Shown here: positions 2,302 through 8,156 of the stretch, one piece after another
How the letters are laid out: the number at the start of each line of letters is the position of its first letter
Position numbering within the stretch: the first letter of the stretch is position 1
DNA from: an uncultured Propioniciclava sp.
Lineage (GTDB): Bacteria; Actinomycetota; Actinomycetes; Propionibacteriales; Propionibacteriaceae
Assembly: GCA_937872005.1 (NCBI GenBank)
Contig: CALMPQ010000472.1
Coordinates: 1-12,284, forward strand
DNA length: 12,284 nt
Direction of reading: 5' to 3'
Notes under the pieces: generated by a model
What the model was told of the DNA's origin: nothing
The model's database searches: none
Seen by the model: only the letters and a program-made list of their open reading frames with translations
Program-made: the position numbers and the translations under genes

Positions 2302-3189
2302 ATGCGCAGACTCGCCACCGCCGTGGGCACACTCGCCGCGGGCGCCGGGTTGGGCGCGCTGGGCGTGGCCGGGTTCACGGCGTGGAGCCTCAACGGCCCC
2401 CGCCGACCGTGGCCCGCCTACGCCTTCACCCCCTTCGAGGTGCGCGCCGACGCCGAGGATGTCACGTTCACCTCCGGCGACGGGGTCGGTCTGGCGGGCT
2501 GGTGGCTGGACGCCCCCGGCTCGGAGTGGGTGGTCGTGTGCGCCCACGGCCACCGGGGTACGAAGTCCGACATGCTCGGCATCGGGTCGGGCCTGTGGCG
2601 GGCGGGGCACACGGTGCTGCTGTTCGACTTCCGTGGCAATGGTGACTCCGACGACGGACCACAGTCCCTGTCGCACCACGAGCAGGGCGACCTGCGGGCG
2701 GCCATCGACCTCGCGGTCGGGCGGCGTCCGAGCGCGAAGGTGGCCGTGGTGGCGTTCTCGATGGGGGCGTCCACCGCGATCCTGGCGGGGGCGGGCGACG
2801 CGCGCGTGGATGCCTTCGTGCTCGACTCGCCGTTCGCGACGATGGGCGACGTGGTCGCCGCGAACTATCGCCGCCACCGGCTGCCGTCGCGGCCGATCCT
2901 GCCGCTGGCCGACCTCGTCAACCGTCTGCGCTACGGGTACTCCTACGCCCAGGTGCGTCCGTTGGACGCCATCGCACGGCTCGCCCCGCGGCCGGTGCTG
3001 TTGCTGCACGGGGACCGCGACCGGGTGATCCCGTACGCACACGCCGAGCAACTCGCGGACGCCGCCGGCCCCGGTTGCACCTTCGTCACCTTCCCGGGCG
3101 CCGACCACTGCGGCGGCTACTTCGAGGACCGACCCGGCTACATCGCGCGGGTGAACTCCTTCCTGAGAGGTCGTGGTGCGCATGCCTGA
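2302..3189 (+). CDS. Alpha/beta hydrolase, membrane-anchored or exported
   Basis: A 295-residue serine hydrolase of the alpha/beta fold. The N-terminus has Arg-Arg followed by a hydrophobic Ala/Gly-rich stretch (about 8-28), a membrane anchor or uncleaved signal, so the catalytic domain probably faces outside. Catalytic residues: nucleophile Ser153 in AFSMGAS (the usual first Gly of GxSxG is Ala here), acid Asp240 in HGDRDRVIP, and base His269 in GADHCGGY; the oxyanion-hole region is AHGHRG (81-86). The spacing matches the prolyl oligopeptidase/Bem46-like group of peptidases and esterases. The substrate is unknown. The gene starts 14 nt after the thioredoxin-fold gene with no Shine-Dalgarno but with a leaderless-type -10 box. 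Its last codons overlap the start of the next gene, suggesting co-translation. Confidence 0.85.
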   Translation: MRRLATAVGTLAAGAGLGALGVAGFTAWSLNGPRRPWPAYAFTPFEVRADAEDVTFTSGDGVGLAGWWLDAPGSEWVVVCAHGHRGTKSDMLGIGSGLWRAGHTVLLFDFRGNGDSDDGPQSLSHHEQGDLRAAIDLAVGRRPSAKVAVVAFSMGASTAILAGAGDARVDAFVLDSPFATMGDVVAANYRRHRLPSRPILPLADLVNRLRYGYSYAQVRPLDAIARLAPRPVLLLHGDRDRVIPYAHAEQLADAAGPGCTFVTFPGADHCGGYFEDRPGYIARVNSFLRGRGAHA

Positions 3190-3622
3190 CGGGCCCACCG
3201 GTGGATCACGGTGGAGCGTGATCGCCCTAGTGGCGACGCTGGCGGTCCTGGCAGTCGCTGGAACCGTCCACCTGACCACGACCCTGCTGTCAGACGCGTG
3301 GAGTCGCGGCCAGATCGACTTGGTGGACCGATTCACGCGCGAGCCGCCCAACCCCGACTGGCCCTATCTCGATGCCGCAGACCGCACCGCACGGGTGTGC
3401 GTGCCGCCCGTCACCTGCGTGCAGGCGGTCGGCAACGAGTACCTCACCGTGATGAAGTTCGCCACGGTTGACGAGGCGCGCCGCCACGCCGAGACCCTCG
3501 GCCCCGACGGACGCCAGATCGACCAGCTGGTGCTGCACTTCAACGGCACGCCGTTGCCCCCTGGCACGCGTGAGGAGATCGTCGCCGGCGTCAGCGGCAT
3601 CAACGCGAGCAGCCCCGAGTAG
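3176..3622 (+). CDS. Small membrane-anchored protein of unknown function
   Basis: About 145-149 residues depending on the start. A single hydrophobic helix near the N-terminus (roughly residues 12-32 from the first GTG) is followed by a mostly polar domain containing a CVPPVTC cysteine pair and an alpha/beta pattern (NEYLTVMKFATVDEARRHAETLG, in outline). I do not recognise a family; the pattern suggests an exported, membrane-tethered domain with one disulfide. The start is ambiguous: GAGAGG at 3165-3170 is 5 nt from GTG 3176 (chosen), 2 nt from GTG 3173 and 11 nt from ATG 3182. All three overlap the hydrolase stop codon at 3187-3189, so the two genes are likely co-translated, and this protein may act with the hydrolase or the upstream thiol oxidoreductase at the cell surface. 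Confidence 0.6.
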   Translation: MRMPDGPTGGSRWSVIALVATLAVLAVAGTVHLTTTLLSDAWSRGQIDLVDRFTREPPNPDWPYLDAADRTARVCVPPVTCVQAVGNEYLTVMKFATVDEARRHAETLGPDGRQIDQLVLHFNGTPLPPGTREEIVAGVSGINASSPE

Positions 3623-4552: not shown

Positions 4553-4610
4553 GAGGGTGGCCCGCCGCGGAACCCCGCGACCCACCCCCACCGGGCCCGG
4601 AGGTTCGACC

Positions 4611-6287
4611 ATGGCTGACGTGATGCAGGGCATCGCCGAGGATGTCCGCTTCAACCACGGCGCCGCCTCGCTGCTCGCCAGCCGGTGCCGCGCCGCCGCC
4701 AACGCCATCGACAACCAGGCCCCCGGCCGTGCTGCCTGGGTGCAGCACGGTCTGGAGGACTTCCAGGGCTACTACTCCCAGCTCTTCGCGCAGAACGGGC
4801 AGGTCCAGGCGTCCGACGCCTCGCTGCTCGCGGCGCGCCTGCGTGAGGTGGCCAGCGGCGCCGAGCAGCTCTCCCGTGAGGCCCGCAGCGAGCAGCAGCG
4901 CCGCCAGACGGCTCGCGAGTGGAAGCAGCGGCAGGACGACCGCAACCGGCTCGAACAGGGGCGCGATTTGATCTTCGGCGGAGAGGATCCGCCCGTCGGT
5001 CCGCCCGCCCAGCCGATCACGCTGACCTACGCGCAGGCCTCCACCACCCCGCGTCAGCCGCTCGAGGGCCAGAGCGGGAGCGGCACGTCATCCGCCCGCC
5101 CCGCCAACCTACGGTCGTTCGCCACGAACTCGGCCGGCGCCTACGAGGGCCTCGCCCCACACCCCGGCCTGCTGCGGGACGCCTATTCCTCCTTCACCAG
5201 CGGCTGCGGTTGGGGATCCCTGTCCGCCGACGGCGTCTGGGCCGGCTTCGACGCGTACCTGACGGCCAACGGCAACGACGTCACGTGGGCGAACGCCGTC
5301 GCGGCCGGCGTCCACGCCGAGCGCCAGGACCTGCAGATCGACCCGCCCCAGGCCTACGGCGCCCCGCCGACCACCGGCTACGCCAACGACCCGGTCAACA
5401 CCGCCACCGGCAACTTCCTCGAGCCCGAGAGCCCCGACAACGCACGCTTGGGCATCGATGGGTCGGGGAACGTCGCCGTCCAGGGGGACAATGTCCTCTT
5501 CCCGAACTTCGGGGATCGTCCGAGGGCCGACGCCTTCCTCGAGCAGCGGCTGGCCCAAGGATTCGACGGGACAGAGATCAAGGCCTTCGACGTGCCGGAC
5601 TCCTACGCCGACTCGATCCGGAATCGCGCAGCGCCAGAAGCGCAAGCCAGGGGCAATCCCGTGTTCCAGGTGGACACCACCAGGACCGACAGCTCGTTCG
5701 GCCTGCGCTCCAGCGAGTTCCCCGGGTTGGTCGACGCCGCGATCCCTGGCAGTGGACGGTGGTGGCTCCATGACAATGGCTTCCATGAACGACGAACGGG
5801 TGCGCCTCCTCCAGGGCCCGGCACCAGGTCAGCGACCGGGACGATCGGGTCTTGTGACGGTGCATGTGCATGCTCCTTCCGGGGTGGCCGACGTGCTGGT
5901 CCGGGCCAGGGAGGTGCTGGCCCACGTCCTGGTCCCAAAGCAGGGGGCTTCAGGCGAGAGCCCGAAGCACACGTGCCGGCGTGGTTTGTCCAGGCGTGCG
6001 CGCCCGAACCCACGGCAGCGGAGCGAGAACGGTGGCTGGCGTGGTGGCGGACGCTCGACCACGCGGGCAAGGTCGTTGCAGAACGAGAACGGGGGTGGAC
6101 GCTCCAGGAGTGGCTGTCCTGGATGGAGCCTCAGGAACGCACGTGGTGGTGGGATGCGCAGCCAACCTCGGAGTTCGACGCCACGATCGCTGTCGAGGTG
6201 GAGGGCTGGCCGACCGCTCTCGGTGCCCTTGAATGGCTCCTCACGGCATCAGGCGCGAGCACCATCTCAGAACCGCAACACGGTTGA
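4611..6287 (+). CDS. Polymorphic toxin: WXG-like N-terminus, PVNTATGNF motif, C-terminal toxin; frame runs on into the immunity gene
   Basis: The ORF is 558 residues from the ATG. Residues 1-120 form a helical, WXG100/LXG-like region (Trp43, a long charged coiled coil with REWKQRQ), which in actinobacteria marks ESX/type VII secretion. A linker follows, then a second helical segment (165-240), then DPVNTATGNF (260-269), the signature preceding RHS barrels in exported polymorphic toxins. No RHS/YD repeats follow: within about 25 residues a C-terminal domain begins (about 295-385; landmarks FDVPDSY, PVFQVD, FGLRSSEFPGLVDAAIPGSG) resembling toxin tips of RHS proteins. I cannot name its activity. 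After GSG-Arg383 the sequence turns into low-complexity Gly/Pro/Arg/Cys, the mark of an out-of-frame read, and from about residue 446 it is the tail of the immunity gene. The natural toxin end is probably near 5773. ATG 4611 is chosen over GTG 4557 because of GGAGG at 4599-4603 and because the extra 18 residues are low-complexity. Confidence 0.75.
   Translation: MADVMQGIAEDVRFNHGAASLLASRCRAAANAIDNQAPGRAAWVQHGLEDFQGYYSQLFAQNGQVQASDASLLAARLREVASGAEQLSREARSEQQRRQTAREWKQRQDDRNRLEQGRDLIFGGEDPPVGPPAQPITLTYAQASTTPRQPLEGQSGSGTSSARPANLRSFATNSAGAYEGLAPHPGLLRDAYSSFTSGCGWGSLSADGVWAGFDAYLTANGNDVTWANAVAAGVHAERQDLQIDPPQAYGAPPTTGYANDPVNTATGNFLEPESPDNARLGIDGSGNVAVQGDNVLFPNFGDRPRADAFLEQRLAQGFDGTEIKAFDVPDSYADSIRNRAAPEAQARGNPVFQVDTTRTDSSFGLRSSEFPGLVDAAIPGSGRWWLHDNGFHERRTGAPPPGPGTRSATGTIGSCDGACACSFRGGRRAGPGQGGAGPRPGPKAGGFRREPEAHVPAWFVQACAPEPTAAERERWLAWWRTLDHAGKVVAERERGWTLQEWLSWMEPQERTWWWDAQPTSEFDATIAVEVEGWPTALGALEWLLTASGASTISEPQHG
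5770..6287 (+). pseudogene. Immunity-protein gene, frameshifted in a G run
   Basis: Two frames share one protein. The first half starts at ATG 5770 (in-frame ATGs also at 5776 and 5785) and reads sensibly to VLAHVLVPKQG at 5946. In that frame the continuation becomes Arg/Gly/Ser-rich nonsense, while the frame one base back continues sensibly: GFRREPEAHVPAWFVQACA, a long amphipathic Glu/Arg/Trp helix, WTLQEWLSWMEP, VEVEGWPTALGALEWLL, to the stop at 6285-6287. The junction is the five-G run 5943-5947; one extra G restores a single 172-residue, Trp-rich, cytoplasmic-looking protein. Its place directly after a toxin tip, with its ATG overlapping the TGA that would end the toxin in the adjacent frame (5770-5773), fits a cognate immunity gene. 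Alternatives to loss of function: a base-calling error, or -1 slippage on the G run. The immunity role is inferred from position and composition. Confidence 0.7.
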
Positions 6288-6308
6288 CGCCAGCTCCCGC
6301 GAAGTGGC

Positions 6309-6906
6309 TCATCCTAGCCCCGTGGGTGCACCCATCCCCAGACGCGCAGCAACCGCCGCGGACACCGGATAGGGCCGTTCCACCGGCACCGCGCTGAGGT
6401 CTCCCGCCTCCGCACGGCGTGCCACATCGGTGACATTGTCGATGCGCAGGATCCATTCGTCCACGTAGGCGTCGACCACCCGGGGGCCGAGTCCAATCTG
6501 GATGGCGCGCCACGACAGCGGCTGCAGGTCGGCATCCCGCTCGGGATCCCACTGGACACACACCGGACTGGCCTCCTTGGCGCGCCGCCACGCCTCATGC
6601 GTGCCGTGTACGTCCGCCTCAAAGTGGCTCAGGGATGCCAGCTCCAGCGCCCGGTCGAACCCCACGCGACTCATCCGCACTGCCAGGACGCGCTCCTGAC
6701 CGAGCTTGGTGGCCCACCCGGAGCGGTACATCATCCAGAAGAAGGACGGCTTGATCCACGTCATCCGGTCGCGTTTGAACGGCGCCACGAAAGTGCCGAC
6801 CGCCACCGCGGCGTCCCGCGATCGCAGGTGAGTAGGCCTGGTAGACGGTGATCGTGGCGTCATCGAAGTGCGCGCGGACCTCCCGAAAGGGATGCGCAGG
6901 CATCAC
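6309..6906 (-). pseudogene. DUF4291 protein gene, broken by a one-base insertion
   Basis: The family's N-terminal pattern (FREVRAHFDDATITVYQAYS, then PAIA) is read from GTG 6906 (or ATG 6903). The conserved core TFVAPFKRDRMTWIKPSFFW (then MMYRSGWATK), LSHFEADVH, VQWDPERD, and YVDEWI lies in another frame that runs to the stop at 6309-6311. The frames meet at a three-C run on the + strand (6815-6817); removing one base joins PAIA directly to DAAVAVGTFVAPF and gives a protein of about 198 residues, the usual DUF4291 length as I recall it. DUF4291 has no established function. The start overlaps the stop of the upstream ATPase gene (GTGATG), so both belong to one operon. The gene converges on the toxin/immunity locus with 21 nt between stops. 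It is either inactivated or carries a sequence error. Confidence 0.85.
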
Positions 6907-8156
6907 GGCCCCAGCGTGGCGAGGGGGATGACATGGACCCCTGAGGGAAGAGTGCGCGCGAATTGGCCAGCCGTCACCACCGCCAAGAAGGCGGGTTCAC
7001 CGACGAGCGCCGTGTCCACCCTCTCCCGAGCGAGTTTCAGCAAGCTGGCTTCAGCGTCGGCCAGCCGTTGCTCACCCAGCTTCACCTCGACCGCACCCCA
7101 CCCACCACCAGGAAACTCGATCACCACGTCGACCTCCAGCCCCGTGTTGTCCCGGTAGTGGAACACCTCGCCGCGATCCAGCGACGCGTACACGCGCAGG
7201 TCACGCACCACCATGGACTCGAACACACACCCGAAATAGTCCACGTCACGGGCCAGACGATCAGCTCCCACACGCAGGGCCGCACACGCGAGGGAAGGAT
7301 CGACGAAGTGCACCTTCGCCGTCGTCCTCAGTCTTGATCTCGACCGCAGGGCGACGTTCCACGCCGGTTGCGGCTCCACGGCGAAGACTCGCTCGAGCGC
7401 GTCCAGGTAGACACGGAGTGTTGTGGCGTGTGTGTCACCACCATCAGCATTCACATCCGCAGCCAGGCTCACGATCTTCGCCTCGGTGGCCACGTTGCGC
7501 GCCAGCGATTCGACGAGACGCCGCACGCGGATCGGGTCGTGGCGCACGTCGGCCGCGGTCGGCAGCTCGATCCTGATCAAGTCGTCCAGGTAGGACGCGT
7601 TCGCCAGCGCAGCAGCGTCATCGGGCACGCCCAGCAAGCCGGGCCACCCCCCACGGACGGCATGAACCGCCATGTCGCGGTAGCTCAGCCCACTCGCCGC
7701 GCCAACACGCCCGGCGCCCGCCACGAGTTCCGCAAGGGAGACCGCACCGGAGGAGGCGCCCACCTCGTAAAGGCTCATGGGACGCAGCCGCAGGCGACCG
7801 AACCGCCCGGCCCCGGTATGGCGCGTCACGTCGTCCTCGGGGGTGGCCGACCCGGACAGGATGAATTGACCCTTGGCCTGGCGGAAGTCCACCTCATGGC
7901 GAATCACGTTCCACAGAGAGGGGGCCAGCTGCCATTCGTCAACCAGACGAGGGACGTCCCCCTCCAGGATCAGCTCGGGGCTGAGGTCGGCCACCTCGAG
8001 CAAGGAAGGGGAGGCATCCAGTCGCACCGAACTACGGCTGTGCTGGAGAGCCGTGGCCGTCTTCCCAGCGGCGCGGGCACCCTCGAGGACGACCGCCCCG
8101 AAGGCCGCTAGGTAGCCGGGCAGGAGACGATCCACAACCCGTTGACGATAAGCCAT
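6903..8156 (-). CDS. AAA-family ATPase with C-terminal DUF4143 / nuclease-like domain
   Basis: A complete 417-residue protein of the AAA_14-DUF4143 type. Walker A is GARAAGKT (26-33), Walker B LVDEW (71-75, with Asp73 and Glu74), and the sensor-like strand is ILSGSA (99-104). The lid region RFGRLRLRPMSLYEV (118-132) is typical. The C-terminal part (about 195-415) is DUF4143, ending in a PD-(D/E)XK-like arrangement: EVDVV (341-345) and EVKLG (357-361). These ATPases are widespread accessory genes of poorly defined role, sometimes suggested to act on DNA or in defence; nothing here narrows that down. The ATG at 8156 lies 7 nt after a leaderless-type -10 box, and the stop overlaps the DUF4291 start. 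No damage is visible, unlike its downstream partner. Confidence 0.9.
   Translation of the reverse strand: MAYRQRVVDRLLPGYLAAFGAVVLEGARAAGKTATALQHSRSSVRLDASPSLLEVADLSPELILEGDVPRLVDEWQLAPSLWNVIRHEVDFRQAKGQFILSGSATPEDDVTRHTGAGRFGRLRLRPMSLYEVGASSGAVSLAELVAGAGRVGAASGLSYRDMAVHAVRGGWPGLLGVPDDAAALANASYLDDLIRIELPTAADVRHDPIRVRRLVESLARNVATEAKIVSLAADVNADGGDTHATTLRVYLDALERVFAVEPQPAWNVALRSRSRLRTTAKVHFVDPSLACAALRVGADRLARDVDYFGCVFESMVVRDLRVYASLDRGEVFHYRDNTGLEVDVVIEFPGGGWGAVEVKLGEQRLADAEASLLKLARERVDTALVGEPAFLAVVTAGQFARTLPSGVHVIPLATLGP

What the first reader, a model, noticed from the sequence alone, without database searches (positions are those of the whole stretch)
5770..6287. Immunity gene split across two frames at a five-G run
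The frame from ATG 5770 makes sense up to KQG, then turns into nonsense, while the frame one base back makes sense from GFRREPEAHVP onward. Adding one G to the run at 5943-5947 produces one coherent 172-residue protein. If real, a toxin carrier has lost its immunity gene, which should be tolerated only if the toxin is also inactive or if -1 slippage on the G run rescues some product.
Basis: partly seen in the sequence, partly recalled or inferred. Interest (0 to 1): 0.7.

Follow-up and report, generated by a model that had tools for sequence, protein, structure and literature searches.

The report
Decayed Rhs toxin module, broken immunity gene
A bacterial toxin gene that has lost its shell and part of its active domain sits beside a protective gene that is broken in two, so the two-frame immunity gene looks like ordinary decay of a disarmed weapon rather than a live toxin without its antidote.

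Summary
The two frames in 5770-6287 match one 176-aa protein that is a single gene in Propioniciclava sinopodophylli (N piece 29/57, C piece 73/109 identical). The 8 homologues aligned are each one open frame across the junction. The break lies at about 5934-5956; the five-G run is inside it but is not singled out by the alignment.

The 'toxin carrier' is itself a remnant. Against P. sinopodophylli, 4068 nt (1356 codons) are missing at a 4-bp microhomology, 5426-5429: the whole Rhs shell and the first strand of the toxin domain with its conserved [YF]R. The toxin frame misses its stop and runs to 6287. The neighbouring DUF4291 gene is frame-broken too. The other genes tested on the contig show no break, and a small sample of the genome shows no excess of breaks over a control. 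Best reading: real decay of one inserted module. Errors confined to this stretch cannot be excluded without reads. Slippage rescue has no support.

By-product: DUF4291, for which two paper searches found nothing, is predicted to have an ADP-ribosyltransferase fold and often lies beside this toxin-immunity pair.

The parts
4611..5429 (+). N-terminal region of an Rhs carrier protein, up to the DPVNTATGNF(LEPE) motif
   Evidence: 73.8% identical over 294 aligned positions to the N-terminal region of the 1769-aa Rhs protein of G009; 4 of 13 genomes of the genus have matches
5426..5429 (+). deletion junction with 4-bp microhomology; 4068 nt (1356 codons) fewer than in G009
   Evidence: blastn: left side pairs with L004:12321, right side with L004:8253, overlapping in the window by 4 bp (sequences shown)
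5430..5759 (+). remnant of an ADP-ribosyltransferase-like Rhs toxin tip, lacking the first strand and its conserved [YF]R
   Evidence: 78% identical to the tip of G009; [YF]R present in 6 of 6 other tips aligned, absent here
5740..5773 (+). end of the toxin frame: the TGA at 5771-5773 exists but is out of the toxin's frame, which reads on to 6287
   Evidence: in the 6 relatives examined the gene ends GSG plus 3-5 residues and TGA
5770..5946 (+). immunity gene, N-terminal piece (P0001)
   Evidence: 29/57 identical to P0004 residues 1-54
5934..5956 (+). interval of the frame break; contains the five-G run 5943-5947
   Evidence: end of the N match and start of the C match to one protein
5946..6287 (+). 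immunity gene, C-terminal piece (P0002) with stop
   Evidence: 73/109 identical to P0004 residues 60-168
6312..6902 (-). DUF4291 gene, split across two frames at about 6811-6818
   Evidence: pieces 6327-6818 (E 8e-85) and 6811-6894 (E 2.3e-8) match residues 28-191 and 3-30 of one G009 protein; break also flagged; PF14124 178.9 bits
4611..6287 (+). 558-codon open frame that an annotator would call as one gene: carrier N-terminus, toxin remnant, out-of-frame stretch, immunity C piece
   Evidence: frame 4557-6287

Best explanation
This is the decaying remnant of an inserted Rhs toxin module (Rhs carrier with an ADP-ribosyltransferase-like toxin tip, its immunity gene and a DUF4291 gene) in a Propioniciclava species. 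Shown by comparison: the module lies between a GNAT gene and a fumarase gene that are adjacent in relative G001, and P. sinopodophylli carries the module with full-length genes beside the same fumarase gene. Shown: here a 4.07-kb stretch present in that copy is missing, in frame, which joins the carrier's N-terminal region to the toxin tip and takes the shell and the first strand of the toxin domain; the toxin's stop is out of frame; the immunity gene and DUF4291 each have one frame break. Inferred: the toxin is inactive; the deletion came first, the need for immunity ended, and immunity and DUF4291 then began to decay; the breaks are recent because each piece is otherwise open.
For: Two frames, one homologous protein; 8 aligned homologues each one frame; deletion with 4-bp microhomology; loss of the strand with [YF]R kept in 6 of 6 other tips; toxin stop out of frame; DUF4291 split; G001 has fumarase and GNAT side by side; open frames of 8 other genes (7.6 kb) match relatives in one stretch over nearly their length, and relatives' frames laid on the window (9.0 kb covered) flag only DUF4291; break clusters 6.2 per 100 kb covered in the sample against 8.1 in the control.
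Against: No reads or second strain of the species are held, so the three small breaks could be local indel errors. The genome sample is small: 20 of 482 contigs plus the window, 48.4 of 148.3 kb covered by reference frames. An earlier, cruder run flagged three more positions on contig C370. The genome holds a core-only Rhs piece (C224) that starts at a contig end; a longer variant of this locus in the population is not excluded. The order of events is inferred only.
Confidence: 0.72

Rival explanations
1. The deletion is real, but the small frame breaks (toxin end, immunity, DUF4291) are sequencing or assembly errors confined to this stretch; the organism has whole immunity and DUF4291 genes beside a disarmed toxin, that is, orphan immunity.
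For: Draft genome of 482 contigs; each piece is otherwise open; no reads to check; orphan Rhs immunity genes are a known thing (PMC10539506, search listing only).
Against: Three breaks in about 1.47 kb of the module and none detected in 7.6 kb of other genes of the contig: about 0.004 if breaks fell at random (own arithmetic, made after the fact). No excess of breaks in the sampled contigs over the control.
Confidence: 0.21
2. The immunity protein is made whole by -1 slippage on the G run.
For: The five-G run lies inside the interval of the break and the C piece follows in the -1 frame.
Against: None of the 8 homologues aligned is split; runs of five or more G or C are frequent in the window (35) and mark nothing; the toxin is predicted dead, so there is nothing to neutralise; DUF4291 is broken as well.
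Confidence: 0.02
3. The 558-codon frame 4611-6287 is a working fusion of carrier, crippled toxin tip and immunity C piece, kept for some new role.
For: The large deletion and the two small shifts leave one uninterrupted frame.
Against: About 60 codons in the middle are the immunity gene's N part read out of frame; long chance-open frames are common here (one search lists 84 frames of 60 codons or more); within the 57 related genomes searched the tip occurs only here and in G009, where the genes are separate.
Confidence: 0.03

Closest known systems
Rhs module of Propioniciclava sinopodophylli KCTC 33808 (NZ_SDMQ01000013.1, G009:C4)
   Same: Same place beside fumarase, same gene order: Rhs toxin, immunity, DUF4291; tip 78% identical
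   Different: There the Rhs protein is 1769 aa, and immunity and DUF4291 are each one frame; no DUF4143 gene and no GNAT gene found at the locus
RhsP2 of Pseudomonas aeruginosa (C-terminal ADP-ribosyltransferase toxin acting on RNA, PDB 7rt7) with immunity RhsI2
   Different: No sequence relative found in the PDB set for the tip or the immunity family; Foldseek itself gave no match to the tip at E <= 0.001; the copy in the window is crippled
Orphan Rhs toxin and immunity genes
   Same: Rhs loci that lack delivery parts or a cognate partner (PMC7043789, PMC3967940, PMC10539506; search listing and start of abstracts only)
   Different: Here the carrier's N-terminal part is kept, the shell is lost and the immunity gene is broken
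DUF4291 (PF14124)
   Same: The gene at 6312-6902 scores 178.9 bits against a cut-off of 27
   Different: Here split across two frames and next to a toxin-immunity pair; no stated function, and no paper with the term was found

Membership tests
Rhs polymorphic toxin locus | Rhs/YD-repeat shell between N-terminal region and variable tip | tested here: not met
   Present in the G009 copy (RHS_repeat, DUF6531, Rhs_assc_core); missing in the window. The window holds a remnant of such a locus.
Rhs polymorphic toxin locus | Immunity gene directly downstream of the toxin tip | tested here: met
   Order tip then immunity in the window, G009, G171, G106, G299 and, with a weak immunity match, G437; in the window the gene is broken. 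That it neutralises the toxin was not tested.
ADP-ribosyltransferase toxin (RhsP2-like) | ART fold of the tip | tested here: met
ADP-ribosyltransferase toxin (RhsP2-like) | First-strand arginine (R of the R-Y-E triad, R1490 in RhsP2) | tested here: not met
   [YF]R in 6 of 6 other tips, absent in the window because of the deletion. Equivalence to R1490 is inferred from the aligned ranges and PMC12340436 (passages).
ADP-ribosyltransferase toxin (RhsP2-like) | ADP-ribose transfer to RNA | not testable with these tools
   needs an assay
Immunity pseudogene | Frame broken where homologues are one frame | tested here: met
   8 aligned homologues are one frame; window in two frames
Immunity pseudogene | Break present in the organism, not only in the assembly | not testable with these tools
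   no reads held; indirect evidence
Programmed -1 frameshift gene | Split frame conserved among homologues | tested here: not met
   8 of 8 aligned homologues are one frame
ADP-ribosyltransferase superfamily (for DUF4291) | ART fold | tested here: met

The most novel reading that the evidence does not exclude
DUF4291 is an ADP-ribosyltransferase-fold enzyme that belongs to this Rhs toxin-immunity module as a third component (a second effector, or a protein that protects its own cell from the toxin); when the toxin was disarmed, immunity and DUF4291 lost their use and broke together.
Probability: 0.3. Interest if true: 0.55.

Novelty: new member of a known kind. Interest (0 to 1): 0.3.

Why it matters
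It turns an apparent paradox (toxin kept, antidote lost) into a simple, testable order of events: disarm first, then lose protection. It warns that automatic annotation of this stretch gives a 558-aa chimera of carrier, toxin remnant and immunity piece. The side result gives a predicted fold and a recurrent genomic setting to DUF4291, a curated family without assigned function.

Tried and rejected
General indel noise in the genome: 20 of 482 contigs (two chosen because they carry Rhs genes) plus the window, 48.4 of 148.3 kb covered by reference frames, gave 3 break clusters (DUF4291 in the window, a decayed Rhs gene on C68, one on C90); the control, 20 stretches of G009 against G001, gave 13 in 161 kb. 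An earlier run with a cruder reference set also flagged three positions on C370, which did not recur when reference frames were chosen by third-position G+C. The immunity and toxin-end breaks are not in these automatic lists; I take it that the overlap and identity filters left them out. They rest.

Assembly collapse of Rhs repeats as cause of the deletion: the junction shares 4 bp, too short to assemble on (general knowledge), and the flanks are syntenic with G009 and G001. A core-only Rhs piece on C224 starts at a contig end and might be thought the missing core; its tip differs, it has no blastn match to the window and shares no 20-mer with it. That it belongs to a longer variant of this locus is not excluded.

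Second copy of the tip or of the immunity C piece in the same genome: none found. Viral contigs: no relative of the C piece. Pfam and NCBIfam: no family match of weight for the toxin tip or immunity protein. PDB by sequence: nothing convincing for the tip, and no match for DUF4291 or immunity. Immunity protein in 394 genomes of the class: 15 with a match, own included, many weak; profile in 396 genomes of the phylum: 3, own included, only the best 9 first-look candidates per genome being scored. The immunity protein's fold was not predicted (both jobs used). A restart inside the C piece was considered and not pursued: it would lack the first third of the protein.

Full report
WHAT WAS CHECKED. 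The window is one whole contig, C472, of a draft genome of 2.49 Mb in 482 contigs, 72% complete. The two frames were translated and compared apart. Both match one protein, P0004, 176 aa, read in a single frame in G009. G009 is Propioniciclava sinopodophylli KCTC 33808 by an identical match on a contig of equal length, and the window's genome is in the same genus. A profile of seven homologues gives two hits in the window in two frames. The 8 homologues aligned each cross the junction in one open frame; 8 weaker hits were not aligned, and one of them has stops inside its match. The G run cannot be singled out as the place of the indel: gaps against G009 are spread over about 5890-5970 and such runs are frequent (35 of five or more G or C).

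THE MODULE. In G001 of the same genus GNAT and fumarase are adjacent (L072). In the window the Rhs remnant, immunity gene, DUF4291 and a DUF4143 gene lie between them; in G009 the Rhs gene, immunity gene and DUF4291 lie beside fumarase. DUF4291 is found in 2 of 13 genomes of the genus, the same two that carry the tip, and in 6 of the 57 related genomes searched. Of 12 loci brought in by the tip or the immunity protein and read at length, 5 hold DUF4291: window, G009, G171, G106, G201. Seven do not: G148, G299, G437, G152, G288, G289, G229. Five weak immunity hits were not read at length. Of four loci brought in by DUF4291 alone, one (G047) has the immunity gene beside it. The link is frequent, not general. 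In the window DUF4291 too is split across two frames (6327-6818 and 6811-6894).

IS IT ERROR? The open frames of eight other genes of the contig (7602 bp) match a relative in one stretch over nearly their whole length; the frame at 3173-3622 had no relative in the set and DUF4143 only one of 34% identity. In the reverse test, relatives' frames laid on the window (9.0 kb covered), only DUF4291 was flagged. Three small breaks in about 1.47 kb of module against none seen in 7.6 kb has p about 0.004 if breaks fell at random (own arithmetic, after the fact). The sample of the genome shows 6.2 break clusters per 100 kb covered against 8.1 in the control, but it is small. Of 12 loci with the Rhs N-terminal region in four genomes of the genus, nine lie in open frames of 1757-2032 aa and three are damaged: this one, C68 of the same genome, and one at G009:C4, 52-53 kb. 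Decay of Rhs loci is not rare here. Error confined to this stretch stays possible.

MECHANISM. Most likely the deletion disarmed the toxin, after which immunity and DUF4291 were free to decay. The lesions are shown by comparison; inactivity and order are inferred. Slippage rescue is unsupported: no aligned homologue is split, and a dead toxin leaves nothing to neutralise.

VERDICT. This is an ordinary fate of a polymorphic toxin locus, with an interesting neighbour.

Noticed in passing
6312-6902; L004:6676-7257, L175, L176, L182, L188: DUF4291 lies beside the immunity gene in five genomes besides the window (one of them, G047, found through DUF4291 itself), and its model matches the RhsP2 ADP-ribosyltransferase tip better than any other fold found.
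   Followed up: partly
L072 (G001:C1), about 7041-7112: Empty site: fumarase and GNAT genes are adjacent in G001, where the window has the Rhs remnant, immunity, DUF4291 and DUF4143 between them.
   Followed up: yes
6903-8156: An AAA/DUF4143 gene lies between DUF4291 and fumarase here and not in G009, where DUF4291 abuts fumarase.
   Followed up: no
L004 about 13277-13511 (G009): The GNAT gene that lies next to the Rhs locus in the window and G001 was not found in the G009 stretch, and the small gene beside it matches only in part.
   Followed up: no
L213 (G000:C224): An Rhs core of 1341 codons that starts at a contig end, without an N-terminal region, with a different tip.
   Followed up: partly
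L026 (G000:C68) and G009:C4, 52-53 kb: Two further Rhs genes of the genus are frame-broken or stopped in or just after the N-terminal region.
   Followed up: no
L188 (G047), 5963-7317: Immunity gene and DUF4291 side by side without a detectable tip; a short frame upstream ends in IIPGSGC, like a toxin end. Possibly another decayed module.
   Followed up: no
L177 (G148), 6436-7755: A relative of the tip ends an open frame of only 440 codons, with no match to the immunity family or DUF4291 in the stretch read.
   Followed up: no
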